Source: an uncultured Alphaproteobacteria bacterium (GTDB taxonomy: Bacteria; Pseudomonadota; Alphaproteobacteria; Thalassobaculales; Thalassobaculaceae). Taken from it: a stretch of DNA of 64,000 nucleotides. Each line of letters opens with the position of its first letter. The first letter of the stretch is position 1. Below are positions 40,912 to 53,760 of this stretch, in pieces. The stretch lies in the NCBI GenBank assembly GCA_902629125.1, contig CACOPQ010000008.1, positions 1 to 64,000 of the forward strand, given 5' to 3'. Under the pieces are notes generated by a model. That model was not told the origin of the DNA, ran no database searches, and worked only from the letters and a program-made list of their open reading frames with translations. The translations under genes and the position numbers were made by a program.

Positions 40912-41979
40912 ATGAAATTGTTAATTCTTCCAGGCGATGGCATTGGACCAGAAATTTCTAGAGTGGTAGCCAATGTTGTTGAATGTTTAAACAACAAGCT
41001 GGATTTAGGAATAGAGTTAAAAGAAAAAGATGTAGGGTTTACGGCTCTTGAAGGTTATGGGACAACTTTTCCAGCTGACGTAGCCAAAGAAGCGGAGGCT
41101 TCTGATGGAATAATTTTAGGTCCTTCTGATAGCGCAGCTTACCCATCCCCTGAGCGAGGAGGTGTAAACCTCTCAGCGGCTTTCCGCCGTAAATTTGATT
41201 TATTCGCAAACATTCGCCCAGCTAAATCTTGGGCAGGAATAAACTCCCATGCACCTTCAATGGATATGATTGTAGTGCGTGAAAACACCGAAGGTTTTTA
41301 TGCTGACAGGAATATGTTCACTGGTTCTGGGGAGTTTATGCCGACGCCTGATCTAGCCTTAGCTGTTAGAAAAATAAGCCGAGATGGATCACGACGAATT
41401 GGAGAAGTGGCAGCAAAAATTGCGTCGGGAAGACCGAGAAAGAAGGTCACTATAATAACGAAGTCAAATGTTTTGAAACTTTCTGATGGATTATTTAGAG
41501 ATGAATGCATAGAGGCATCCAAAAAATATCCTGGCCTTGAAGTTGACGAGCTGCATGTTGATGCGGCCGCGTCTTTGTTTGTCAGAACGCCTGATAATTT
41601 TGATGTTGTAGTGACGTCTAACATGTTCGGAGATATATTGTCCAATTTAGCAAACGAGCTATCGGGCGGGCTTGGATTAGGTGGGTCGCTGAATGCTGGA
41701 CACAACAAAGCCGTAGCACAAGCAAGTCACGGTTCTGCTCCGGATATTGCGGATCAGAATATGGCAAATCCATCGGCACTCCTGCTATCGACTGGAATGT
41801 TGTTTGACTGGTTAGCTGAACGAAATGACAGTAATGCGTTAAAAGAGGCGGCAAGACTAATTAGATTCAGTATGGAACAAGTGTTTACGCAACCTAATAA
41901 TTTAACAGTTGACCTGAACGGTAGCTTGGGGACGGACCAATTCGGTATGCAAGTAATAAAAAAGATTGAGGAACTCTAA
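40912..41979 (+). CDS. Isocitrate/isopropylmalate dehydrogenase family protein
   Basis: 355 residues, a decarboxylating 2-hydroxyacid dehydrogenase. Family landmarks are LPGDGIGPEI, FANIRPAKSW, VVRENTEGFYA (catalytic Tyr), KSNVLKLSDGLF (catalytic Lys), and VVTSNMFGDILSNLANELSGG with the metal aspartates. The substrate loop (ERGGVNLSAAFRRKFDLF) does not settle whether it is 3-isopropylmalate, tartrate/malate or another 3-substituted malate. No leuC/leuD is near. Its stop is one base before the aldo-keto reductase ATG, implying a shared task. Confidence 0.85.
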   Translation: MKLLILPGDGIGPEISRVVANVVECLNNKLDLGIELKEKDVGFTALEGYGTTFPADVAKEAEASDGIILGPSDSAAYPSPERGGVNLSAAFRRKFDLFANIRPAKSWAGINSHAPSMDMIVVRENTEGFYADRNMFTGSGEFMPTPDLALAVRKISRDGSRRIGEVAAKIASGRPRKKVTIITKSNVLKLSDGLFRDECIEASKKYPGLEVDELHVDAAASLFVRTPDNFDVVVTSNMFGDILSNLANELSGGLGLGGSLNAGHNKAVAQASHGSAPDIADQNMANPSALLLSTGMLFDWLAERNDSNALKEAARLIRFSMEQVFTQPNNLTVDLNGSLGTDQFGMQVIKKIEEL

Positions 41980-41980
41980 A

Positions 41981-42817
41981 ATGAATTCGACAGTTATTCT
42001 CCCAAATGGTCGCGAGGTCCCATCGTTAGGATTGGGGACATGGCATATGGGAGAGAGAATAGGTGACCCTACCACTGAGGCATTAGCTTTAAAGCGTGGT
42101 TTGGATCTCGGAGCTACCGTTATAGATACAGCGGAAATGTATGCTCGTGGGGGGGCAGAAAGAGTTGTTGCTGAAGCTATTAAAGGGAGGAGGGAAGAGG
42201 TTTTCATTGTCTCAAAAGTATTACCTCACAATGCGAGCAGGCATGGCACAATAAGAGCCTGCGAGAATAGCCTGCAACGTTTGGGTATAGATGCAATAGA
42301 TTTATATTTATTACATTGGCCCGGGCCCCATCCGTTGGGCGATACGATTGAAGCGTTTCATGATCTAAAAAAAATTGGAAAAATCAAAGCATGGGGGGTA
42401 AGTAATTTTGATACGTCTGATATGGAAGAACTTTGGAGAGTCCCCGGTGGCGCCGACTGCCAAACCAACCAAATTTTATACAATTTGATGCGGCGTGGCG
42501 TAGAATGGGATCTTTTACCCTGGTGCCACAAAAACGGTGTCTCGGTTATGGCATATTCGCCACTGGAACAAGGACGTTTGCTTAATAATAAAAAACTGAA
42601 CTCGCTTGCTAAGCAACGGAATCTTTCGGCAGCCCAGATAGCGATAGCTTGGACACTTTGCAAAAAGGGCGTCATGTCCATTCCAAAGGCGAGTTCGATA
42701 AGGCATGTTGAAGAAAATATAGCTGCTTGGAGTATAAAATTAGAAAAGTCGGACTTGGATTTACTAAATGAAGAATTTAAGCCGCCTTTAAAAAAAGGAA
42801 TGCTTGATATTTTGTAA
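41981..42817 (+). CDS. Aldo/keto reductase
   Basis: 278 residues from the ATG at 41981 with GAGGA in the end of the previous gene as ribosome binding site; an upstream in-frame codon at 41966 overlaps that gene. The catalytic tetrad is Asp49, Tyr54, Lys79 and His112 (LLHWPG). NADPH-binding residues lie in the C-terminal SIPKASSIRHVEENI. Class resembles the 2,5-diketogluconate reductase-like prokaryotic AKRs. The substrate is unknown. Confidence 0.88.
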   Translation: MNSTVILPNGREVPSLGLGTWHMGERIGDPTTEALALKRGLDLGATVIDTAEMYARGGAERVVAEAIKGRREEVFIVSKVLPHNASRHGTIRACENSLQRLGIDAIDLYLLHWPGPHPLGDTIEAFHDLKKIGKIKAWGVSNFDTSDMEELWRVPGGADCQTNQILYNLMRRGVEWDLLPWCHKNGVSVMAYSPLEQGRLLNNKKLNSLAKQRNLSAAQIAIAWTLCKKGVMSIPKASSIRHVEENIAAWSIKLEKSDLDLLNEEFKPPLKKGMLDIL

Positions 42818-43359: not shown

Positions 43360-44493
43360 CTAGGCTAAAATTTGATCGATTTTACTTTGCGCCACGCCAG
43401 CATTTCTTGCTGCGTTTAGAATATCTTTCCAGGCTTCATTTGCTAAAGGAACACCGTTGTTTAATCGATCCGTCATTACTTGTCGTTCTTTTTCTCCTGG
43501 TATTAAAACCGCGCCACGAGGTTCCGTAGGACGAGAACTTTTAAGAAACTCAACATAAGCTCTAACCTCGCATACAAATGAGTCATCACTATGACCAAAA
43601 GCTTCGGGGGATAGAAAAATGGAAAACATGCCATTACAAAATCTTCTTTTAGTCTCATTAACTGTTCCAGCGCATCCAGACCCGGTTAACGCTCCTGCCA
43701 TCATCTCCATAAGAAAGTTTAAGCCAGACCCTTTATGATCTCCAAAAGCTCTCAGCGCACCTGATCCTTCATTTGGGTTTGGAAACATACCTTGTTTAGT
43801 ATCCCCATAGAGAGGTTTGGGGTCACCTGTAATTTTACCATCTTCTGTTACTATAGCGTCTTCTGGCAAAGGTTTCCCGCCTTTGAGTGCCACGAGTGCT
43901 TTTCCTTCTGCCACTACTGATGTTGCCATGTCGAGTATTATTGGGTCATCGCCATTGTCCAACGGGATACCTGCGCAGAATGGTGAAGTACTCATGCGCC
44001 TGTCGATACCCCCGAATGGAGCAACGATCAAACTCCCTCTAACATTTACCATATGTATAGAAACTAATCCTTTTTCTGCGGCTCTTTCAGCCCAATCCCC
44101 AATACGGCCCAAATGGCCGGCGTTTTGCAGCGCTGTGATGGCTACCCCATTTTTAAGAGCTTTTTTTATTCCAATATCTACCGCTTGTTCGCCTACAGTT
44201 TGTCCAAAACCAAATTTACCATCTATGACTGCCAGCGTTTCGTTTTCTATTTTTATATCAACCGTCACATTGGGAATTTGCCTACCTTCTTCTATATAAT
44301 TTGCGTATCTTGGTGCCCTAATTACTCCGTGGCTATCATGCCCACGGAGATTGGCGCCAGCCAATCTCTCAGCAATTCGTGTTGCCTCTACATTTGAACA
44401 GCCTAATTTAATGAAGGTTGTTGAAATGATGGTTTTTAAAGGGTCTACTTGGACCGTAACAGAACCATCGGCGTTCTCTAGTACTGATGACAT
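43360..44493 (-). CDS. Ldh2/ComC family NAD(P)-dependent 2-hydroxyacid dehydrogenase
   Basis: 377 residues, the malate/L-lactate/ureidoglycolate dehydrogenase superfamily (COG2055). Signature residues are NLRGHDSHGVIR (catalytic His), NAGHLGRIGDWAERAAEKG, ILDMATSVVAEGK and FGDHKGSGLNFLMEMMAGAL. Known members reduce 2-oxo acids such as oxaloacetate, sulfopyruvate, 2,3-diketogulonate and piperideine carboxylate. It is the last gene of a four-gene unit with RraA, a D-2-hydroxyacid dehydrogenase and an HpaI aldolase, 12 bases after the latter. A sulfolactate-dehydrogenase-like role is one option because of the ComDE-like pair nearby. Confidence 0.86.
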   Translation of the reverse strand: MSSVLENADGSVTVQVDPLKTIISTTFIKLGCSNVEATRIAERLAGANLRGHDSHGVIRAPRYANYIEEGRQIPNVTVDIKIENETLAVIDGKFGFGQTVGEQAVDIGIKKALKNGVAITALQNAGHLGRIGDWAERAAEKGLVSIHMVNVRGSLIVAPFGGIDRRMSTSPFCAGIPLDNGDDPIILDMATSVVAEGKALVALKGGKPLPEDAIVTEDGKITGDPKPLYGDTKQGMFPNPNEGSGALRAFGDHKGSGLNFLMEMMAGALTGSGCAGTVNETKRRFCNGMFSIFLSPEAFGHSDDSFVCEVRAYVEFLKSSRPTEPRGAVLIPGEKERQVMTDRLNNGVPLANEAWKDILNAARNAGVAQSKIDQILA

Positions 44494-44505
44494 AGATTTA
44501 CCTTT

Positions 44506-45258
44506 TTATGAGCGAACTGCATTGATCTGAGATGATACAACTTGTGTCAACAATCGAACATCATTTGATAGTGATGCGAAATCAAAACCACATTCGTACA
44601 TTTTTTTAATATAATCGGGATCCATGCAGTGAAGTCCTGCACGAATACCTGATGCTTTCGCTGTATTTAAAACATGCTGAATAGCATCATAGACCTTTCC
44701 GGGCCCTCTATCGAGTCCAGGTCCTTCGCCCATAGAGATAGCAAGGTCGCTTGGCCCAACGTAAATGCCGGTCAAGCCAGGGGTAGAACATATTGCTTCT
44801 GCGTTTTCAACTGCTTGCTCTGTCTCGATCATCGCTAGACTTATAATCTGATCATTGGCAGAGTTATGATAATCAGGGTGAATTATATTGGCTCTAACTG
44901 GACCTGAGCTTCTATATCCCTGCGGAGAATATAGGGTTGCGCCAACAAAGTCCTCTGCTTCTCGTCGTGAATTAATCATTGGACAAATAATGCCCATAGC
45001 TCCAGCGTCCAGTAATTTCATAATAATACCCGCTTCTAACCAAGGTACTCTACAGAGCATTGTTGCGTCACTGGCTGACATAGCCTGCATCATCGGAACA
45101 GCTATAGAATAGTCGGTAAGACCGTGTTGTAAATCGATGGTAACCGAATCAAAATCTTGGTGAGACATGATTTCCGCAGAGAACGTACTAGGGATGGCGA
45201 GCCACCCATTTAGCGCAGGTTTTCTAGTGTTCCAAGCTTCTCTAAGTCTATTTCCCAT
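44506..45258 (-). CDS. HpcH/HpaI family class II aldolase
   Basis: 250 residues. Catalytic His45 (DLQHGLTDY), Arg70 (CRVPW), metal ligands Glu145 (MIETEQA) and Asp171 (GPSDLAISMG) line up with 4-hydroxy-2-oxoheptanedioate/2-keto-3-deoxy-L-rhamnonate aldolases. The reaction is retro-aldol cleavage of a 4-hydroxy-2-oxo acid to pyruvate (or a homologue) and an aldehyde. It is third in the RraA-to-Ldh2 operon, 24 bases after the dehydrogenase. Confidence 0.88.
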   Translation of the reverse strand: MGNRLREAWNTRKPALNGWLAIPSTFSAEIMSHQDFDSVTIDLQHGLTDYSIAVPMMQAMSASDATMLCRVPWLEAGIIMKLLDAGAMGIICPMINSRREAEDFVGATLYSPQGYRSSGPVRANIIHPDYHNSANDQIISLAMIETEQAVENAEAICSTPGLTGIYVGPSDLAISMGEGPGLDRGPGKVYDAIQHVLNTAKASGIRAGLHCMDPDYIKKMYECGFDFASLSNDVRLLTQVVSSQINAVRS

Positions 45259-45282
45259 TAAGTTTCTCCCTCAATTCAATCT

Positions 45283-46275
45283 TTATCCAGATGAATTCAA
45301 TACACTTTGGTTTACCACACATTCGGGATCAATATTTCCATCAAATACTCGTAAAACGTTGTCTACGGTTTGAGTCGCCATTCGTCGCGTAGACTCAACT
45401 GTGACGCCCGCTATGTGGGGACTTAGTAAAACATTTTTTAAACTGAATAGCGGGTGATCCGCCGCTGAAGGTTCATTCAGCAGCACGTCAAGCCCAGCTC
45501 CTCTTATTTCACCGCTGGTTAGCGCTTGATATAGTGCATGTTCATCTATTATTCCGCCTCGAGCACAGTTTACGATAAAGGCGTCCCGTTTCATCTTTTT
45601 AAATTCTGGATCAGAAAACATATTAGTCGTCTCTTCAGTTTTCATGCAATGTATGGCTACTGCATCCATATCACCGAGTACTTCTCTAAAGTCCTTCACC
45701 GGTTCTACATTAGCTGTTTTTAAAATTGCATCATCAACGTATGGGTCGTATCCAAATACTTTAAGATCAAAACCTAAGGCTCTTTTTGCAACTTGGCGGC
45801 CGATTCGACCAAATCCAATAATTAAAAGATTTTTTCCATCTAAATCCACTGCACGAGTAGGAAATCGAGGTGCCCAATCATTGGTGCGCGTCACCTCATC
45901 ATAGTAAAAAATCTCTTTTGCCAGCCCCAATAAAAGTGCTATTGCTTGTTCTGCAACGGATATCATATTCGAATGTATAGCTATACAAAGCGGGATATTT
46001 CGTTCATTTAAAGTATCGAGATCAACTGCATCATATCCCACACCATGTCGAGAGACGACCATAAGGTCTGGAGCCTGCCGCATAATTTTACGTGTGATCG
46101 TCGCACCTCGGACTGTCATTGCATGAACGTCTTTTGCAGCTTCCGCTATAACATTCTCATCAAGAGAGTCACACTCGATTATTTCAATATCATCCCGCGC
46201 GTTTAGCATTTCCATGCCAGCTGGGTGAAGTGGTTGGATTACTAAAACCCGTTTTTTATTGGTATTTATCGCCAT
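45283..46275 (-). CDS. D-isomer-specific 2-hydroxyacid dehydrogenase (PGDH/hydroxypyruvate reductase-like)
   Basis: 330 residues from the ATG at 46275. The longer frame starts at TTG 46287, but TTGAGGA there is the ribosome binding site for the ATG. NAD-binding GFGRIG at 154-159; catalytic Arg in NCARGG, Glu in LLNEPSAADHPL and His in SPHIAG. It interconverts a D-2-hydroxy acid and its 2-oxo acid. The same family includes (S)-sulfolactate dehydrogenase SlcC, but nothing in the sequence fixes the substrate. It lies second in the operon, eight bases from RraA. Confidence 0.88.
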   Translation of the reverse strand: MAINTNKKRVLVIQPLHPAGMEMLNARDDIEIIECDSLDENVIAEAAKDVHAMTVRGATITRKIMRQAPDLMVVSRHGVGYDAVDLDTLNERNIPLCIAIHSNMISVAEQAIALLLGLAKEIFYYDEVTRTNDWAPRFPTRAVDLDGKNLLIIGFGRIGRQVAKRALGFDLKVFGYDPYVDDAILKTANVEPVKDFREVLGDMDAVAIHCMKTEETTNMFSDPEFKKMKRDAFIVNCARGGIIDEHALYQALTSGEIRGAGLDVLLNEPSAADHPLFSLKNVLLSPHIAGVTVESTRRMATQTVDNVLRVFDGNIDPECVVNQSVLNSSG

Positions 46276-46283
46276 TTTTATCC

Positions 46284-46991
46284 TCAATGTATCTCAGCAG
46301 AGTCAGCCATCGCTTTTTTTAATATATCAACATTAAAACCAGGAGATCTAGCCACTTCAAGAATTATGGCTTCTCTACGCGTTAGAATATCGATTGCAGA
46401 TGGTAGTTCTTTCACACATTCTTCTGGAACTACGACTGCACCATGTCGGTCGGCATGAATGATATCATTTGGTTTTACTGCCATTCCGAAAATATTTACT
46501 TCGCACTCAATCGCAACAAGATGAACCCACGCATGGCTTGGCGCAACCTTTCCGCCTAAAAGTTGAAAGCCAGGCGCACAAGCATCAATATCTCGAAACG
46601 AGCCATTTGTCACGACACCTAAACACCCCAATCCTTTGTGAATAGCAGTATTTACCTCTCCCCAAAAAGCGCCGAAACCTGGGGTGGGGTCAAGGTCTTG
46701 AATCACACTAATAGAAGGGTTAGGCGTCGCTGCAATCGTCTCATAGTATTGAGCTCTCATCTCTCTTATGTCTTCTGGGGTCCCTTCAGGTGGTGTCATT
46801 GAGCGTATCATCGCGGTTCTGGCATATCCAATGATTGGAGGCAGGGAAGGATCAAAACACTGCATCTGCTCAACGGTGAAGCTTTTTACGCGGTATTCTG
46901 AACTTAAATGTTCAAGACCATTGCAGATAGTTGGAGTATCCCATTCCGTCAATTTGTTTAAATCAGCAGCAGTCAAATCAGTTTTTGCCAT
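46284..46991 (-). CDS. RraA family protein (possible 4-hydroxy-2-oxo acid aldolase)
   Basis: 235 residues with the RraA-fold core FWGEVNTAIHKGLGCLGVVT and the functional NGSFRD (Arg133, Asp134), then HAWVHLV and PNDIIHADRHGAVVVPEE. Characterised relatives are the 4-hydroxy-4-methyl-2-oxoglutarate/oxaloacetate decarboxylase aldolases and the RNase E inhibitor RraA. Beside two hydroxyacid dehydrogenases and an HpaI aldolase, an aldolase or oxo-acid decarboxylase role is far more likely than RNase control. First gene of the operon, divergent from kdgK. Confidence 0.86.
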   Translation of the reverse strand: MAKTDLTAADLNKLTEWDTPTICNGLEHLSSEYRVKSFTVEQMQCFDPSLPPIIGYARTAMIRSMTPPEGTPEDIREMRAQYYETIAATPNPSISVIQDLDPTPGFGAFWGEVNTAIHKGLGCLGVVTNGSFRDIDACAPGFQLLGGKVAPSHAWVHLVAIECEVNIFGMAVKPNDIIHADRHGAVVVPEECVKELPSAIDILTRREAIILEVARSPGFNVDILKKAMADSAEIH

Positions 46992-47071
46992 TTCGCGCCC
47001 CTTGATAAAAGTTATAAGGATTGCGATGTTAACAAGTCATCGTGGATAAAGTTAGGGTTGAGTAAAAAATT

Positions 47072-47081
47072 TTTGATCAAA
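47072..47081. promoter_or_regulatory. Palindrome between divergent RraA operon and kdgK
   Basis: TTTGATCAAA is a perfect 10-base palindrome in the 115-base divergent gap between the RraA-headed operon and the kinase gene. Its position would let one regulator control both. No regulator gene is adjacent, so the assignment rests on symmetry and location only. Confidence 0.25.
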
Positions 47082-47118
47082 TCATAGCTGGGATTTTATA
47101 GAAAAGTTGAGGGGCATT

Positions 47119-48051
47119 TTGTCTGGAGATATTGATATTAGTTGTCTAGGTGAACCTATGGTTGAGTTCACCCGCTTACAAAAAAATGTTAAAGAAAATC
47201 AATATGTCCAAAGTTTAGGTGGCGATACATCTAACTGCGCTATAGCTGCTGCACGCCAGGGTGCCAAAGTAGCTTACATAACCGCGGTTGGAGATGACCG
47301 GTTTGGTCGCTTCGCATTAGATTTCTGGCAAAAAGAAAATGTTGACGTGTCTGGTGTTTCGGTTTTCATGGATCATGCCACAGGAATTTATTTCATAGAG
47401 CCTGCTGGCAATGCGCGTGACTTCACTTATTATCGAAAAGGGTCAGCTGCGAGTAAAATCACGCCAAAGGATCTGCCGGGAGAAATCATATCTAAATCTA
47501 AATTTTTCCATCTTTCAGCAATCAGTCAGGCTATAAGCAAAACGGCAGAGGAAACGTGTTCGATTGCTATAAATCTTGCAAAGCAAAATGCTGTTAAAAC
47601 TTCGTATGACACGAATTTGCGTTTAAATCTCTGGGGCCTTAAAAGGGCGCGGAAACTGATACACGAGACTGCAACGAAGGCTGATATACTTCTCCCAAGC
47701 CTTGATGAGGCTCGTTTATTGAGTGGGCAACAATCGATTGACGATATCATAGGGTATTATATGAAATTTGGGCCAGACATTTTGGCATTGAAGTGTGGCG
47801 AGCAGGGAGCAGTGATCGCTTATGGAAATAAAATTGAGTTCATACCCCCACTTAAAGTTGATGCAATTGATACCAGCGGAGCTGGAGACACGTTTGACGG
47901 CGCATTTCTTTCACAATTATCTTTAGGATATTCGCCATTTGATGCAGGACAATACGCGGTAACCGCAGCAGGGCTTTCAGTAAAAGGATACGGTGCTGTT
48001 AATGCTATTCCTCTAAGAAAAGCTGTTTTAAAGAAAAATGGTAACAAGTAA
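47119..48051 (+). CDS. kdgK: PfkB-family sugar kinase, 2-keto-3-deoxygluconate kinase-like
   Basis: 310 residues from a TTG at 47119, which has GAGGGG just upstream; the longer frame starts at a TTG (47107) that is part of that site. LGGDTSNCAIAAARQGAKVAY and the catalytic DTSGAGDTFDGAFL are PfkB hallmarks, and FIEPAGNARDFTYYRKGSAA resembles KDG kinases. It would make 2-keto-3-deoxy-6-phosphogluconate for the Entner-Doudoroff aldolase. It is divergent from the RraA operon and convergent with the MFS gene 14 bases away. Confidence 0.82.
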   Translation: MSGDIDISCLGEPMVEFTRLQKNVKENQYVQSLGGDTSNCAIAAARQGAKVAYITAVGDDRFGRFALDFWQKENVDVSGVSVFMDHATGIYFIEPAGNARDFTYYRKGSAASKITPKDLPGEIISKSKFFHLSAISQAISKTAEETCSIAINLAKQNAVKTSYDTNLRLNLWGLKRARKLIHETATKADILLPSLDEARLLSGQQSIDDIIGYYMKFGPDILALKCGEQGAVIAYGNKIEFIPPLKVDAIDTSGAGDTFDGAFLSQLSLGYSPFDAGQYAVTAAGLSVKGYGAVNAIPLRKAVLKKNGNK

Positions 48052-48065
48052 AAAAATATTGTCGA

Positions 48066-49271
48066 TTATTCAGGAGTTCCTGAAGCGGCATCTTGAGATT
48101 TTACAATAAAAAATATTGCCGATAAAGCTATGATAATAGTCAAAAAGAAGCTGATGTTATATGCCCCTGCGATGGAATAGCCTGTACTGAATAAAAGTGG
48201 CCCAACAAAAACACCTGAAAAAGTAATAAAAAAGCTTGCCCCAGTAGTTTTACTTACATCGTTCTTAGGCGACAGCCGGACAATTTCGCTTGCATAAACA
48301 CCATTCCATCCCATGCCAGCAACACCGAAAACAAAACAAAGTGTATATACTAACAAGTGAGGCCATTGCGGCGATAAAGTGATTGTTATAACCGCACAAA
48401 TCATGGCGATCAGGGCTATGATCATTAGGGTCAAAAGGCCATTGTTAATTTTATCTGCAACCCACCCCCAGGCCACTCTTCCAAAGATACTGGAGAACTG
48501 GATTACAGATAATCCCAATCCAGCTAAAACAAGTGAATATCCTATATCTTCGACCAACATCGTTACAGTAAATGTCGTTAAAGTAGTTTGAATAGCTCCC
48601 ATGCACATACCGTATAGTGCAACCCATCGCAGCGAGGTTAGTCGCCAAACAAGTTGAAGGTCGGTTAGTGGATTTCGAAGCAAAGCCGTATCACTTGACC
48701 TATCGCTGTCCCATTTTCGACGGAAAGGTTGCATTGCAAGGCAAAGGCCTGCAGCAACTATAACTGAAAATAGCATACTTTGTTGCCATCCAAACTCTAA
48801 AGCTACTTGGGGTGCCAAAATGCCGGCAAGCACACCGCCAATAGGAACGCCCGTAAATCTTATTGAGAAGATGAGGTTTCTATTTTTTTTCGTTACTACT
48901 TTTGATAACAAGTGTGAAGCCGGTGGGGTGATCATGCCGTAAGCCCATCCGAGAACAACTGAACCCAGGGCAATTAAAAATAAAGACCCTCCCATAAACA
49001 TTAAATGCGAGATGCCTATCAATAAAAGCGCTAACTGAGAGGTTCTCCAGGCACCAAACCTATTAACGAACCCCCCAGCAAATAGGCTGGATATCATCGC
49101 GAAAATATAAAGTAGTAAAACGGGATATGCTATCAAGGAGGCATTTAATCCTACGTTATCTGCCACCTCAGGAGCTATTGCGGGTAACCAAAAGCCAGCC
49201 ACGGCCCCCGTTCCTTGAACCAGGATTAAAAACCCCACGACGATAAAAGTATCTGGTCGCGAGTCATTCAT
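48066..49271 (-). CDS. Major facilitator superfamily transporter
   Basis: 401 residues with 12 predicted helices; the loop between helices 2 and 3 reads GGFVNRFGAWRTSQLA, an MFS motif-A variant, and the mirror copy GWVADKINNG follows helix 8. The type resembles cyanate/nitrate/organic-anion MFS proteins, but the substrate is not readable. It lies 17 bases downstream of the two decarboxylase subunit genes on the same strand, so it most likely imports the decarboxylase substrate or a precursor. Confidence 0.86.
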   Translation of the reverse strand: MNDSRPDTFIVVGFLILVQGTGAVAGFWLPAIAPEVADNVGLNASLIAYPVLLLYIFAMISSLFAGGFVNRFGAWRTSQLALLLIGISHLMFMGGSLFLIALGSVVLGWAYGMITPPASHLLSKVVTKKNRNLIFSIRFTGVPIGGVLAGILAPQVALEFGWQQSMLFSVIVAAGLCLAMQPFRRKWDSDRSSDTALLRNPLTDLQLVWRLTSLRWVALYGMCMGAIQTTLTTFTVTMLVEDIGYSLVLAGLGLSVIQFSSIFGRVAWGWVADKINNGLLTLMIIALIAMICAVITITLSPQWPHLLVYTLCFVFGVAGMGWNGVYASEIVRLSPKNDVSKTTGASFFITFSGVFVGPLLFSTGYSIAGAYNISFFLTIIIALSAIFFIVKSQDAASGTPE

Positions 49272-49288
49272 TCGAGGAATTTTCTGGC

Positions 49289-49888
49289 CTAGGTTATGTG
49301 CATAGCTGCGGTTGAACCTAATACAGCTTGTCTGAACCTCGTTTTTATATAAACGCCGTCTCTTGATGGTAAAACTAATTTAGGTTTTGTGTTCTCGACC
49401 TTGATATTGGCAACAAGCGGTAGTGGTGAGCTGCTTAATGCATTGATCAATTTATTAAGGTCTTCGTCAGTATAGACGGTCATTGTTGTGGGGATTCCGG
49501 CACCAGCTGCCATGGCCGCGAGGTCTGTACCCCCTGATGTATGGGTTTTTTGCATGCCTGTTTCACCATAATGTTCATTATCGAGAATTATGATTACTAA
49601 ATTGTCAGGTCTTTGGTTGGCGACAGTAGCAAATGATCCAACTCCCATTAATGCCTCACCGTCGCCAGTAATTACCCATACATTCCTTTTGGGTTGCGCC
49701 AGAGCACAGCCTAAGCCCATGGATACAGCGCAGCCCATACCACCCCAATTATAAAAGTTTTCAGGTTGATGATCTGATGCCGCCAGATCCCAAACCGGAG
49801 ATCCCAGGCCTGCGATAGCAAGTGCATTTCCTCTGACCTCCATTAACTTATTCAAAACGTCACTTCGATTTAACTTAGTTGTCGACAT
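49289..49888 (-). CDS. TPP-dependent decarboxylase beta subunit (sulfopyruvate/phosphonopyruvate decarboxylase type)
   Basis: 199 residues, the TPP-pyrophosphate-binding half. The TPP motif GDG at 75-77 ends with Asn104 (GDG-x26-N), followed by EHYGETGMQKTH. NWGGMGCAVSMGLGCALAQP is typical of ComE and of phosphonopyruvate decarboxylases. It needs an alpha partner, which is encoded immediately upstream with a 14-base overlap. Substrates of the family are 3-substituted pyruvates (3-sulfopyruvate, 3-phosphonopyruvate). Confidence 0.87.
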   Translation of the reverse strand: MSTTKLNRSDVLNKLMEVRGNALAIAGLGSPVWDLAASDHQPENFYNWGGMGCAVSMGLGCALAQPKRNVWVITGDGEALMGVGSFATVANQRPDNLVIIILDNEHYGETGMQKTHTSGGTDLAAMAAGAGIPTTMTVYTDEDLNKLINALSSSPLPLVANIKVENTKPKLVLPSRDGVYIKTRFRQAVLGSTAAMHIT

Positions 49889-50426
49889 TGATTACCTCCT
49901 CTGCCACATCAGCTATGAAAGATTTGGCACCAATCAGTTTTTGACCAATTAGAATGGCTACCGCGGCATTCGAAACAAATGCCATTTTCAGCCCAGCCTC
50001 AATCGCCTCAGTTGCCTCTTCGTCCGTCTCTACTTCAAAAACATGCATTCCTAGACTCTTCAAAACGGGTACTACAGCTTGGCCCATTGGCATTTGCCAT
50101 GGGTTTGATTCTCCGTATTGTCCTCGCATCGTGACAATCATAAAAAGGGGGAACTGGCAGGAGCTAACTATTGATGCAATTGCATTAACTGTATTTCCAA
50201 CACCGCTACTTTGCATCAAAACCGCGGCTTTTTCTCCCCCCAACCAAGCGCCTGACGATAATCCGATACCCTCTTCTTCTGTCGTCATCACAACGGATTT
50301 TATATCATTATCTGCATCGCAGCTTTTAATTAATTCTGTAAGGCCGGCATCGGGTACATAACCTACCGTTCTAATATTGTGTTTTTTAAAAAGGCGATGT
50401 GCCGCTGCAGTCCATGGTTCGGCCAT
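49875..50426 (-). CDS. TPP-dependent decarboxylase alpha subunit (ComD-like)
   Basis: 183 residues from the ATG at 50426 (MAEPWTAAAHRLF), with GGAG upstream; a frame reaching 50522 adds an unlikely hydrophobic leader. The pyrimidine-binding half of the enzyme: TTEEEGIGLSSGAWLGG holds the catalytic Glu (50-52) and MQSSGVGNTVNAI, RGQYGESNPWQMPMGQA match the ComD family closely. Overlaps the beta subunit gene and heads a three-gene unit ending in the MFS transporter. Whether the substrate is sulfopyruvate, phosphonopyruvate or another oxo acid is open. Confidence 0.87.
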   Translation of the reverse strand: MAEPWTAAAHRLFKKHNIRTVGYVPDAGLTELIKSCDADNDIKSVVMTTEEEGIGLSSGAWLGGEKAAVLMQSSGVGNTVNAIASIVSSCQFPLFMIVTMRGQYGESNPWQMPMGQAVVPVLKSLGMHVFEVETDEEATEAIEAGLKMAFVSNAAVAILIGQKLIGAKSFIADVAEEVINVDN

Positions 50427-50484
50427 GTTTTCATCACTCCAAAACAAGTAAAAAAATTTTAACGCAAAAAAGCATGAAAATACT

Positions 50485-50512
50485 TTGAATATTGGTATGA
50501 CATTGGCATAAT
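50485..50512 (+). promoter_or_regulatory. Promoter of the molybdoenzyme operon, with direct repeats
   Basis: TTGAAT at 50485-50490 and CATAAT at 50507-50512, spacer 16. The spacer holds two copies of ATTGG(T/C)AT at 50491-50498 and 50502-50509, spaced 11 bases, about one helical turn, a layout suiting an activator or repressor dimer. Leader to the ATG is about 120 bases. Confidence 0.45.
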
Positions 50513-50639
50513 TCTGCGTCAACTACCGCGATCAATATTTCTTGCTTGTGTTGTTAAAAAGAAAGAGTGTTGTCTCGGCATTAAAAAACATGCGAAAACA
50601 AAAGTAGCATAATGCAAAGTTACTCGGGTGGGAACGTAA

Positions 50640-52973
50640 ATGCCATTAGATATGGATAAAGGTCGACCAATAGCTACGACGGCACATTGGGGTACCTACT
50701 ATGCCGAAGTAAAGAATGGCAAACTTACTGGTCTACGAGACTATGAAAAAGATCCATCACCATCGATTATTGGTCAGGGTATCCTTGAAGCATTGGATGA
50801 TAAAGTGCGCGTGAGACGCCCAATGGTTCGAAAAAGCTTCTTAGAAGGTGGTAAGAACTCGGATAGAAAACTTCGGGGTAAAGAGCCATTTGTCGCGGTG
50901 TCGTGGGAAAAAGCCTTGGATTTGGCCGCAGGTGAAATCGATAGAGTTAGAAATGATTTCGGTAATAAGTCTATTTTTGGCGGCTCTTATGGATGGGCAA
51001 GTTCTGGGAGATTTCATCATGCACAAAGCCAAGTCCATCGTTTTTTAAATACGATTGGTGGTTACGTGGCTCATAAGAACAGTTACAGTCATGCTGCCGC
51101 CGAGGTGATTTTGCCGCATGTGATTGCAGAAATGAAACCTATCATTTTTGACCAAGCCACTCAGTGGCCTGATATAGCTTCGGAGTGTGAGCTGATCGTT
51201 GCATTTGGTGGGCTACCGCATAAAAATGCGCAAGTGAATTTGGGTGGCGTTGGCCGGCATACGCTGCATGAGGAAATGAATAATTGTTATGAATCCGGAA
51301 TAGAATTCGTAAATATAAGTCCACTGAAAAGCGATATAGCGGAGCATTTTGAACCAGATTGGATTGGCATTCGACCAAACACCGATGCAGCTTTCATGCT
51401 TGCAATTGCCTACGTACTTTTAAATGAGTCATTGTATGACCAAAGTTTTGTAGAAAAATATACCGTTGGTCTTGATAAGTTTATTCCTTACATCAACGGT
51501 ACCCAAGACGGCTGCTCAAAAGATCCATCATGGGCCTCGAAGATCACCGGTGTGCCAGCCGAAACAATTATTGAGCTGGCCTACCGGATGGCTGAGTGTC
51601 GAACAATGATCATGACAGCGTGGAGTTTGCAACGTGGTGACCACGGAGAGCAACCTATCTGGTTGACTGTCGTTTTGGCTGCTCTACTGGGTCAAATAGG
51701 ATTGCCTGGTGGAGGATTTGGAATCGGCTATGGCTGCGAAAATGGTTTAGGAAACGCTGTTAAATACCACAGATGGCCTGCGCTGTCTCAAGGCGTCAAT
51801 AAGGTGTCGGAATTCATTCCGGTTGCTCGTGTCGCCGATATGTTGCTCTCACCAAATAAAATCTTTGATTACGATGGGGAGAAGTTCAAGTATCCCGATA
51901 TTAAGCTTGTTTATTGGGCGGGAGGTAACCCGTTTCACCACCATCAAGACCTTTCTAGATTGATAGAAGCGTTCACCAAACCAGAATGTATAATAGTTAA
52001 CGAAATTTGGTGGACGTCAACGGCTCGCCATGCCGATATAGTATTTCCAATCACCACAGCGCTTGAGCGAAACGACCTCATGATAACTAAATGGGAGCAA
52101 ACGGCTTCGCCAATGCATCAAGCTATTAACCCAATTGGTGAAAGCAAAAATGATTATGACGTTTTTACAGAATTATCTTCTCGTCTCGGTTGCCGCGAAG
52201 AATTCACCGAGGGACGTGATGAGGAAGGTTGGTTAAGACATTTATGGGATCAAGCAAGACAGCAGGCGGGACGGGCAGGCTTTGAACTTCCAGATTTTGA
52301 AGCTTTCTGGGCTAAGGGACCAGTCGAACTTCTCAAACCAGATAGATCTAGTATTCTTCTTAGCGAGTTTCGAGAGGCCCCTGAGAAAAATCCTTTATCT
52401 ACACCATCTGGGAAAATAGAGATATTTTCAGAAGCTATCGACAAATTTGGCTATGATGATTGCAAAGGGTGTCCTGTCTGGATGGAGCCTTTAGAATGGT
52501 TAGGAAGTGAAATTGCAAAAGAGTTTCCACTGCATTTAATCTCAAATCAACCGAGTACACGCTTGCACAGTCAGCTAGATAGTGGCGGCATTAGTAAAGG
52601 AAGTAAAATAAAAGATCGCGAGCCTATGGTAATGCACCCTGATGATGCTGAAAAAAGAGGAATTCAGACCGGCGATGTTGTTAGAGTTTACAATAAAAGA
52701 GGTAGCTGTTTGGCAGGCGTAAACATCTCCACCAATATCTTGCCTGGTGTCATCCAATTAGCAACAGGTGCTTGGTTCGACCCTGTTCACGGTGATGATG
52801 GAAGTTTACTTTGCAGGCACGGAAATCCTAATGTTTTAACTCGGGATGAAGGTACATCTAAACTTGCACAGGGACCGACGGCGCATTCTACACTCGTAGA
52901 AGTTGAGAAATATGCCAGAACCCTTCCGGCGGTAGAAGCTCACGAGGCACCACCCATTTCTGATTCCATCTAA
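50640..52973 (+). CDS. Molybdopterin-dependent S/N-oxide reductase, BisC-like, cytosolic
   Basis: 777 residues, similar along its length to E. coli BisC: ATTAHWGTYYAEV near the start, RRPMVRKSFLEGG (59-71), FGGSYGWASSGRFHHA, and the C-terminal MGD region IQTGDVVRVYNKRG. Ser150 in NSYSHAAAE aligns with the Mo-ligand serine of the DMSO-reductase family. There is no N-terminal Fe-S cysteine motif and no Tat signal, so it should be a cytosolic enzyme fed by a small redox protein. Known relatives reduce biotin sulfoxide, methionine sulfoxide or TMAO. The SDR gene begins one base after its stop. Confidence 0.9.
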   Translation: MPLDMDKGRPIATTAHWGTYYAEVKNGKLTGLRDYEKDPSPSIIGQGILEALDDKVRVRRPMVRKSFLEGGKNSDRKLRGKEPFVAVSWEKALDLAAGEIDRVRNDFGNKSIFGGSYGWASSGRFHHAQSQVHRFLNTIGGYVAHKNSYSHAAAEVILPHVIAEMKPIIFDQATQWPDIASECELIVAFGGLPHKNAQVNLGGVGRHTLHEEMNNCYESGIEFVNISPLKSDIAEHFEPDWIGIRPNTDAAFMLAIAYVLLNESLYDQSFVEKYTVGLDKFIPYINGTQDGCSKDPSWASKITGVPAETIIELAYRMAECRTMIMTAWSLQRGDHGEQPIWLTVVLAALLGQIGLPGGGFGIGYGCENGLGNAVKYHRWPALSQGVNKVSEFIPVARVADMLLSPNKIFDYDGEKFKYPDIKLVYWAGGNPFHHHQDLSRLIEAFTKPECIIVNEIWWTSTARHADIVFPITTALERNDLMITKWEQTASPMHQAINPIGESKNDYDVFTELSSRLGCREEFTEGRDEEGWLRHLWDQARQQAGRAGFELPDFEAFWAKGPVELLKPDRSSILLSEFREAPEKNPLSTPSGKIEIFSEAIDKFGYDDCKGCPVWMEPLEWLGSEIAKEFPLHLISNQPSTRLHSQLDSGGISKGSKIKDREPMVMHPDDAEKRGIQTGDVVRVYNKRGSCLAGVNISTNILPGVIQLATGAWFDPVHGDDGSLLCRHGNPNVLTRDEGTSKLAQGPTAHSTLVEVEKYARTLPAVEAHEAPPISDSI

Positions 52974-52974
52974 C

Positions 52975-53760
52975 ATGGTAGACATCGATTTCACTGGCAG
53001 AAATGTGTTGATAACTGGCGGCGCTAGTGGAATAGGAAAGGCGAGTGCAAAATCTTTTGCCGCTAGCGGTGCCCGTGTAGCAGTCACGGATTTAGATAAG
53101 GATGGAATTCAAGAGACTGTCCGACAACTAGGAAATGAGCATTTTAGTATTGATGGCGATATTTCCAATAAAAATGATGTTAATAAAATCGTTGGCGCTG
53201 CGCGCGAGTTTCTAGGCAATATTGACATATTAATAAATTCTGCCGGTGTTTCCGATGTAATAATGTCTACCGTTGATCAAGAAGTTGAAACTTGGCAGCG
53301 CATTATAGATATTAATCTTACAGGAACATTCTTGGCGAGCCAGGCGGTTGTTCCTGATATGTTGAAAAGGGGAAATGGATGTATCGTGAATGTAAGCTCG
53401 ATTGCTGGCCTGGTTGGTTTACCTCGGCGTAATGCTTACACCGCCTCTAAACATGGCGTCGCGGGAATAACTAAAACACTTGCAGCAGAATGGGGAATCA
53501 ACGGCGTTAGAGTCAATGCTGTCGCGCCAGGTTACGTGCAAACGCCGATGGTCGCTGATCTTATAAATAGCGGTAAGTTAGATGAAAAAAATCTTATGAG
53601 GCGCACACCGCTGGGCCGGCTGGCTTCTCCCAACGAGATAGCCGAAGTAATTCTTTTTTTAGCCTCAAAATTAGCATCCTATATAAACGGCGCTATTATA
53701 CCAGTAGATGGTGGATACACGGCCTACGGGGCTGCTGGACCTGCTGTTGAGATAGAATGA
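52975..53760 (+). CDS. Short-chain dehydrogenase/reductase
   Basis: 261 residues, a classical SDR: GGASGIG at 15-21, Asp at 39 after the second strand (NAD preference), NSAG (88-91), catalytic Ser142, Tyr155 and Lys159 (YTASK). One base separates it from the molybdoenzyme and seven bases from the spermidine-synthase-like gene, so the three are one operon. Substrate unknown. Confidence 0.88.
   Translation: MVDIDFTGRNVLITGGASGIGKASAKSFAASGARVAVTDLDKDGIQETVRQLGNEHFSIDGDISNKNDVNKIVGAAREFLGNIDILINSAGVSDVIMSTVDQEVETWQRIIDINLTGTFLASQAVVPDMLKRGNGCIVNVSSIAGLVGLPRRNAYTASKHGVAGITKTLAAEWGINGVRVNAVAPGYVQTPMVADLINSGKLDEKNLMRRTPLGRLASPNEIAEVILFLASKLASYINGAIIPVDGGYTAYGAAGPAVEIE

What the first reader, a model, noticed from the sequence alone, without database searches (positions are those of the whole stretch)
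43360..48051. Four-gene hydroxy-acid operon facing a KDG kinase
RraA-family, D-2-hydroxyacid dehydrogenase, HpaI-type aldolase and Ldh2-family genes are packed within 8-25 bases of each other and face a KdgK-like kinase. Two aldolase-type folds and two unrelated dehydrogenases in one unit do not match any sugar-acid pathway I can name. Inference: a branched-chain or 3-deoxy sugar acid is oxidised and cleaved to pyruvate-level products, part of it via KDG.
Basis: partly seen in the sequence, partly recalled or inferred. Interest (0 to 1): 0.58.

Follow-up and report, generated by a model that had tools for sequence, protein, structure and literature searches.

The report
Conserved hydroxy-acid breakdown operon, substrate unknown
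A packed set of four sugar-acid-type enzyme genes in a marine bacterium keeps the same order across its bacterial family, so it is almost certainly one real but uncharacterised pathway for breaking down a hydroxy or keto acid.

Summary
In detail: rraA, a D-2-hydroxyacid dehydrogenase (d2hdh), a HpaI-type aldolase and an Ldh2-family dehydrogenase lie on the minus strand with gaps of 8, 24 and 12 bases. The kinase does not "face" them: it is divergent, over a 127-base intergenic region. In the window's bacterial family the order rraA-d2hdh-hpaI-ldh2 is complete in 26 of 31 other loci examined, 4 are cut by contig ends, and 1 lacks rraA and d2hdh. Outside the family the full set was not seen; only pairs recur. 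The kinase is optional (20 of 31 loci). The set is a real, lineage-specific catabolic unit. Most likely two unrelated dehydrogenases oxidise a 2-hydroxy acid (or both its epimers) to a 2-oxo acid, which the aldolase splits, while RraA handles a second pyruvate-type 2-oxo acid. In three relative genera a TRAP importer lies beside the unit; the binding protein tested resembles 2-oxo-acid binders. No dehydratase that would make KDG lies in it, so the KDG branch is weak, though KDPG aldolase exists elsewhere in the genome. The neighbouring ComDE-like/MFS genes belong to another module; a sulfolactate reading is possible but poorly supported. The substrate remains unknown.

The parts
46284..46991 (-). 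rraA: RraA/HMG-CHA-aldolase-fold protein, first gene of the operon; most conserved member with distant f1 genera (61-66%)
   Evidence: PF03737 55.1 bits, cut-off 24.5; model pLDDT 88.6 matches 3K4I and 3NOJ; R133-D134 and E112 invariant in the 19- and 16-sequence alignments
45283..46275 (-). d2hdh: NAD-type D-2-hydroxyacid dehydrogenase, SERA-like without the Arg-Ser motif
   Evidence: PF02826/PF00389; nearest solved 1WWK; catalytic Arg, Glu and His present in the window protein
44506..45258 (-). hpaI: class II HpcH/HpaI aldolase of a G-x-H-C subfamily, nearest solved relative SwHKA
   Evidence: PF03328; 6R62 E 1e-54; key residues and tree
43360..44493 (-). ldh2: Ldh2-family 2-hydroxyacid dehydrogenase, nearest to HcxB/YbiC type
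   Evidence: PF02615; NF007504 318.8 of 336 bits, L-sulfolactate dehydrogenase model 187.5 of 500; 2G8Y best solved
46992..47118 (.). divergent intergenic region between rraA and kdgK, presumably holding both promoters
   Evidence: sequence; no motif test made
47119..48051 (+). kdgK-like PfkB kinase, divergent, optional partner (beside rraA in 20 of 31 f1 loci)
   Evidence: PF00294; KDG kinase models below cut-off; nearest solved 1WYE KDG kinase; synteny
48066..50426 (-). neighbouring module B (not part of the unit): MFS transporter 48066-49271, ComE-like 49289-49888, ComD-like from about 50426 to 49875
   Evidence: TIGR03846 143.2 of 221.5, TIGR03845 132.5 of 147.95 bits; lies apart from the operon in other genera; late comD start inferred from where homologues begin

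Best explanation
A family-specific catabolic operon for a 2-hydroxy / 2-oxo acid. Shown: four active-site-bearing enzymes of known fold, co-directional, order conserved over eleven genera of one family, with a divergent optional kinase. Inferred: the acid enters (in relatives by a 2-oxo-acid-type TRAP importer); D2HDH and Ldh2, two unrelated 2-hydroxyacid dehydrogenases, oxidise the 2-hydroxyl, possibly one for each epimer as in the SlcC/ComC pair; the HpaI aldolase splits the resulting 4-hydroxy-2-oxo (or 3,4-dihydroxy-2-oxo) acid into pyruvate or hydroxypyruvate plus an aldehyde; RraA acts on a second 2-oxo acid through the same pyruvate-enolate chemistry (aldol cleavage, decarboxylation or, as in FlDet, dehydration/decarboxylation). 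The kinase feeds a side branch (2-oxo-3-deoxy acid to the KDPG aldolase encoded elsewhere) in the genera that keep it.
For: Order conserved in 26 of 31 f1 loci, 4 cut by contig ends. Catalytic residues: HpaI equivalents of SwHKA R69, S116, E145, D171 present; D2HDH Arg/Glu/His present in the window protein; RraA Arg-Asp invariant, matching essential Arg-123 and metal-binding Asp-124 of the HMG/CHA aldolase (PMC5065237 passages). TRAP genes lie beside the operon in g3, g10 and g12; the one binding protein compared (g10) matches TakP 2HZK and a ketoacid-binding protein 7UG8. Functional coupling outside the family: D2HDH+HpaI pairs, Ldh2+RraA pairs, and an RraA of another subfamily beside D2HDH-HpaI in G110. 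KDPG aldolase in own genome.
Against: No activity, expression or growth data. The TRAP genes are absent beside the window's copy and belong only to g3, g10, g12. The substrate type rests on transporter similarity. One intact locus (L080, g6) keeps only hpaI-ldh2, so the four are not inseparable. Relatives of HpaI at similar identity occur in galactarate and inositol clusters, so the aldol substrate cannot be read from sequence. The HpaI residue equivalent to SwHKA R120 is Val or Thr in f1. Four f1 genomes lack the set (G004 62% complete; G011 91%; G015 and G023, 1.5-Mb genomes).
Confidence: 0.5

Rival explanations
1. KDG / 3-deoxy sugar-acid route: a sugar acid is converted to KDG-like acids, part phosphorylated by KdgK and cleaved by KDPG aldolase, part cleaved directly by HpaI.
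For: Divergent PfkB kinase whose best solved relative is a KDG kinase beside rraA in 20 of 31 loci; KDPG aldolase family over cut-off in 33 of 36 family genomes including the window's; HpaI relatives sit in galactarate clusters.
Against: No sugar-acid dehydratase among recurrent neighbours; kinase absent beside the operon in g2, g10 and the intact g6 locus; KDG kinase models 195.1 of 400 and 134 of 400 bits; KDPG aldolase lies on another contig.
Confidence: 0.2
2. Organosulfonate route: HpaI is a KDSG-type aldolase, D2HDH and Ldh2 are the SlcC/ComC sulfolactate pair, and the neighbouring ComDE decarboxylates sulfopyruvate.
For: Same families occur together in the sulfofucose cluster of Paracoccus wurundjeri (PMC12421959 passages); SlcC falls in or beside the SERA clade like this D2HDH (PMC6303947); ComDE-like genes 2-3 kb away; an Ldh2 relative at 48% lies next to PEP mutase in Mesorhizobium.
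Against: No sulfoacetaldehyde acetyltransferase over cut-off in any of the 23 family genomes searched; ComDE models below cut-off; ComDE belongs to a separate module in other genera; the anion-binding Arg-Ser motif of SERA is absent in all 28 family rows and its Arg is Gln in 5; L-sulfolactate dehydrogenase model 187.5 of 500 bits against 318.8 for the HcxB-type model. SuyAB was not searched for.
Confidence: 0.12
3. Dehydratase-free route with hydroxypyruvate as leaving group: D2HDH (or Ldh2) oxidises C2 of a polyhydroxy acid and HpaI cleaves the 2-oxo-3-hydroxy acid to hydroxypyruvate plus an aldehyde; the other dehydrogenase reduces hydroxypyruvate.
For: Nearest solved HpaI is SwHKA, crystallised with hydroxypyruvate (PMC10099721 passages); the Leu-to-aromatic change credited for its promiscuity is a Leu-to-His change here; no dehydratase in the set; HpaI+D2HDH inside inositol clusters fit hydroxypyruvate + malonate semialdehyde as products (inference).
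Against: The same His is present in HpaI proteins of galactarate clusters, which by their neighbours should release pyruvate, so it is not diagnostic; three of the five inositol-cluster genomes or plasmids tested also hold iolB and iolC.
Confidence: 0.18

Closest known systems
SlcC/ComC two-dehydrogenase sulfolactate racemase with HpaI-type KDSGal aldolase (Paracoccus wurundjeri cluster, PMC12421959)
   Same: A PF03328 aldolase, a D-2-hydroxyacid-family and an Ldh2-family dehydrogenase in one degradation cluster
   Different: That cluster has SuyAB, lactonase, dehydratase and an ABC importer; here RraA and a divergent kinase, no Xsc over cut-off in the family genomes searched, and no sulfonate signature tested positive
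Inositol clusters with ALDH-HpaI-D2HDH (Klebsiella aerogenes pC9_001, Pantoea pPAT9B03, Paracoccus, Jiella plasmids)
   Same: Adjacent HpaI and D2HDH genes (about 45-51% and 37-42% identity to the window's)
   Different: No rraA or ldh2 annotated in the four regions viewed; inositol genes present; IolD is not found over cut-off in the window's genome
E. coli garPLRK / rhamnonate YfaU pathways
   Same: HpaI-family aldolase
   Different: GarL and YfaU carry G-x-L-A where this clade has G-x-H-C; no GarR/GarK or dehydratase here
HMG/CHA aldolase and FlDet (RraA family enzymes)
   Same: RraA fold, conserved Arg-Asp
   Different: 17% identity to 3NOJ; the HMG and FlDet pathways use other partners

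Membership tests
HpcH/HpaI class II aldolase | PF03328 fold family over cut-off | tested here: met
   103.3 bits, cut-off 25
HpcH/HpaI class II aldolase | metal ligands and substrate Arg (SwHKA E145, D171, R69) | tested here: met
   aligned residues present in the f1 rows that cover them
named HpaI / GarL / RhmA equivalogs | NCBIfam equivalog cut-off | tested here: not met
   145.3 of 368.8; 127.2 of 406.75; 88.4 of 441 bits
SlcC/ComC sulfolactate dehydrogenase pair | L-sulfolactate dehydrogenase model (NF040650) | tested here: not met
   187.5 of 500 bits; whether this model covers bacterial ComC is not known to me
SlcC/ComC sulfolactate dehydrogenase pair | activity on R- and S-sulfolactate; SuyAB partner | not tested
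   no assay possible; SuyAB not searched
ComDE-Xsc sulfopyruvate route | Xsc (TIGR03457) in the genome | tested here: not met
   0 of 23 family genomes over cut-off, 2 of 14 others over it; own genome only 68% complete
ComDE sulfopyruvate decarboxylase | TIGR03845/TIGR03846 cut-offs | tested here: not met
   132.5 of 147.95 and 143.2 of 221.5 bits
SERA (phosphoglycerate dehydrogenase) subfamily | Arg-Ser motif in the beta3-alpha3 loop | tested here: not met
   Ser in 0 of 28 family rows; Arg in 23, Gln in 5 (motif from PMC6303947 section 22)
2-keto-3-deoxygluconate kinase | KDG kinase equivalog cut-off | tested here: not met
   195.1 of 400; 134 of 400 bits; PF00294 met
RraA / HMG-CHA aldolase fold | fold and catalytic Arg-Asp | tested here: met
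   PF03737; Foldseek 3NOJ 3.5e-11; R133-D134 invariant
[quoted passage not shown]
   21.5 of 304.5 bits

The most novel reading that the evidence does not exclude
The operon encodes an undescribed dehydratase-free, phosphorylation-free way of breaking polyhydroxy acids: direct C2 oxidation by a D-2-hydroxyacid dehydrogenase, then retro-aldol cleavage to hydroxypyruvate plus an aldehyde by a G-x-H-C HpaI aldolase. The same two-enzyme step would serve in many inositol clusters as a bypass of IolB/IolC/IolJ (5-deoxyglucuronate to hydroxypyruvate and malonate semialdehyde).
Probability: 0.18. Interest if true: 0.62.

Novelty: new variant of a known kind. Interest (0 to 1): 0.4.

Why it matters
A strictly ordered operon kept throughout a bacterial family whose closest named relatives here are marine or uncultured genomes points to a substrate that these bacteria use widely and that cannot yet be named. 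It also groups enzymes that are annotated only as 'RraA family', 'hydroxyacid dehydrogenase', 'aldolase/citrate lyase' and 'Ldh family' in many genomes, giving them testable partners and one shared chemistry.

Tried and rejected
Sulfonate reading from the neighbouring ComDE: Xsc is not over cut-off in any of 23 family genomes and ComDE travels separately with MFS, a BisC-type reductase and an SDR, so it was demoted. Inositol: IolD is not over cut-off in the window's genome; four f1 genomes (G006, G007, G008, G017) have it; IolB has no match and IolC none over cut-off in the own genome. His at SwHKA position 210 as proof of hydroxypyruvate use: dropped because galactarate-cluster HpaI proteins have it too. 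A first thought that the lineage might be AEGEAN-169 was dropped: that clade is described as HIMB59 (PMC10308909, search listing only). Literature: the listings of the searches showed no paper on the four-gene set; the library lacks most subscription journals. Searches showed none on HpaI in inositol clusters.

The four truncated loci (L036, L043, L047, L113) are counted as cut, not as complete. In some searches ORFs with query coverage under 0.3 were not shown. The D2HDH of L044 is shortened in the draft and that of L083 holds X.
Full report
What is there. The window holds rraA 46284-46991, d2hdh 45283-46287 (likely start 46275), hpaI 44506-45258 and ldh2 43360-44493, all on the minus strand, with gaps of 8, 24 and 12 bases from the likely starts. 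Pfam confirms PF03737, PF00389/PF02826, PF03328 and PF02615. The PfkB kinase (ORF 47107-48051, likely start 47119) is on the plus strand; it diverges from rraA rather than facing it. Downstream of the kinase, convergent with it, are an MFS gene and ComE/ComD-like genes.

Lineage. Near-identical loci in genome contigs are titled Rhodospirillaceae bacterium or uncultured Alphaproteobacteria (L055-L057, L059); that they are marine is recalled from such isolate names, not from a call. The window's own assembly is 2.37 Mb in 80 contigs, 68% complete, so absences in it are weak.

Conservation. HpaI was found at 52% identity or more in 31 of the 35 other genomes of the family f1 (the four without are G004, G011, G015, G023). 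Regions around all 31 were fetched and called for genes: 26 hold rraA-d2hdh-hpaI-ldh2 in order; 4 are cut by contig ends with the remaining order kept; 1 (L080, g6) has hpaI-ldh2 without rraA and d2hdh. The kinase lies beside rraA in 20 of 31. In g2 a methylglyoxal synthase is in its place (one such protein scored 196 bits against a cut-off of 84); in g10 a TRAP importer precedes rraA in one of two loci (L082). Flanking genes differ between genera, so the unit is kept together on its own account.

Outside the family. Of 385 genomes of the class (5 of them f1), the RraA query matched 74 at E 1e-30 and the HpaI query 87 at E 1e-45. Comparing positions by eye, outside f1 only G220 has the two side by side, and G115 has them 9 kb apart. 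Of 32 outside loci read in detail (12 around HpaI, 20 around RraA) none has the full set. Pairs recur: D2HDH+HpaI (L068, L069 divergent, L070, L071, L072, L074), Ldh2+RraA (L098, L099, L105). In L072 an RraA of a different subfamily stands beside D2HDH-HpaI. On plasmids, 20 of the 30 listed D2HDH records (of 227 matched) also appear among the 40 listed HpaI records (of 177 matched) with the genes next to each other; the four regions viewed (K. aerogenes, Pantoea, Paracoccus, Jiella) carry inositol genes alongside.

Enzymes. HpaI: nearest solved relative is SwHKA (6R62, E 1e-54; E. [quoted passage not shown]), whose structures hold hydroxypyruvate (PMC10099721 passages). Residues equivalent to R69, S116, E145 and D171 are kept; the equivalent of F210 is His in every f1 row, where E. 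coli GarL and YfaU have Leu; R120 is Val or Thr in f1. The f1 proteins form one clade (support 0.994). The same His occurs in galactarate-cluster relatives, so the donor cannot be told. D2HDH: catalytic Arg, Glu and His and an NAD-type Asp are present; the SERA Arg-Ser motif is not (Ser in 0 of 28 family rows, Gln for Arg in 5; motif from PMC6303947 section 22). Ldh2: best model is the HcxB/malate-lactate-ureidoglycolate type, 318.8 of 336 bits, against 187.5 of 500 for L-sulfolactate dehydrogenase. RraA: sequence match to solved structures is weak (3K4I 5.6e-6), but the predicted model (pLDDT 88.6) matches 3K4I, yeast YER010C and the HMG/CHA aldolase 3NOJ. E112, R133 and D134 are invariant in 19 sequences; Arg-123 and Asp-124 of the HMG/CHA aldolase are essential or metal-binding (PMC5065237 passages). 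That E-x20-R-D is a signature motif is recalled, not from a call. The RraA-family enzyme FlDet dehydrates and decarboxylates a 2-keto-3-deoxy acid (PMC8563752 passages).

Importer. The TRAP binding protein beside the operon in g10 (L082) matches 4YZZ, TakP 2HZK and a ketoacid-binding protein 7UG8; TRAP genes also lie nearby in g3 and g12. That 2HZK is TakP and binds 2-oxo acids is recalled; 7UG8 is titled 'Ketoacid-binding protein' in the call.

Module B. ComDE-like, MFS, a BisC-family reductase (1005.6 of 1017.55 bits) and an SDR sit together away from the operon in most other genera (19 loci), in several with the iso_dh/akr pair that lies on the far side of the operon in the window. So in g1 and g8 (and, with fewer of these genes, g11) the operon sits between two parts of another conserved neighbourhood. 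ComDE is therefore weak evidence for the substrate.

Mechanism. Best reading (0.5): a 2-hydroxy/2-oxo acid operon with two unrelated dehydrogenases, an HpaI lyase and an RraA enzyme of pyruvate-enolate chemistry. Rivals: KDG route (0.2; the KDPG aldolase family is present in 33 of 36 family genomes, but no dehydratase is a recurrent neighbour), hydroxypyruvate-releasing dehydratase-free route (0.18), sulfonate route (0.12; Xsc over cut-off in 0 of 23 family genomes). All catalytic steps are inferred; only gene content, order, conservation, folds and residues are shown.

Novelty. Known enzyme families in a combination for which the listings showed no description; hence a new variant of a known kind. 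It is a well-supported operon whose substrate is unknown: interest 0.4.

Noticed in passing
L138, L139, L145, L146 (plasmids): Inositol clusters carry HpaI-D2HDH, in three of the four next to an aldehyde dehydrogenase. The K. aerogenes and Pantoea plasmids lack iolB and iolC over cut-off on the plasmid (chromosomes not examined); Paracoccus and Jiella plasmids and genome G105 have both: a possible non-phosphorylating inositol branch.
   Followed up: partly
window 40912-42817 and 48066-53760: ComDE-like + MFS + BisC-type reductase + SDR is a conserved module of its own in the family, in several genera together with an isopropylmalate-dehydrogenase-like gene and an aldo/keto reductase; function unknown.
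   Followed up: partly
L134 (G000 contig C27, 569-6050): A second ComDE-like pair (47% and 40% identity) lies 4-5 kb from the KDPG aldolase and on the same contig as a PrpF-like gene (by eye); hits of both on one contig recur in other family genomes.
   Followed up: partly
L137 (Mesorhizobium japonicum pMLa): An Ldh2 relative at 48% identity sits among PEP mutase aepX and aminotransferase genes, suggesting phosphonopyruvate/phosphonolactate as a substrate for that branch.
   Followed up: no
L048, L053, L054, L111: A divergent type II dehydroquinase-like gene (in L054 134.1 of 130 bits on one subfamily model, 121.8 of 169.85 on AroQ) recurs near the operon in g4, g5 and g12.
   Followed up: no
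L050, L109, L052, L053: Methylglyoxal synthase genes (196 and 201 bits, cut-off 84, in the two tested) recur near the operon in g2, g3 and g5; no explanation.
   Followed up: no
L062, L065, L066: RraA relatives at 42-45% lie in clusters with HisD-like and SDR dehydrogenases and LacI regulators or sugar importers.
   Followed up: no
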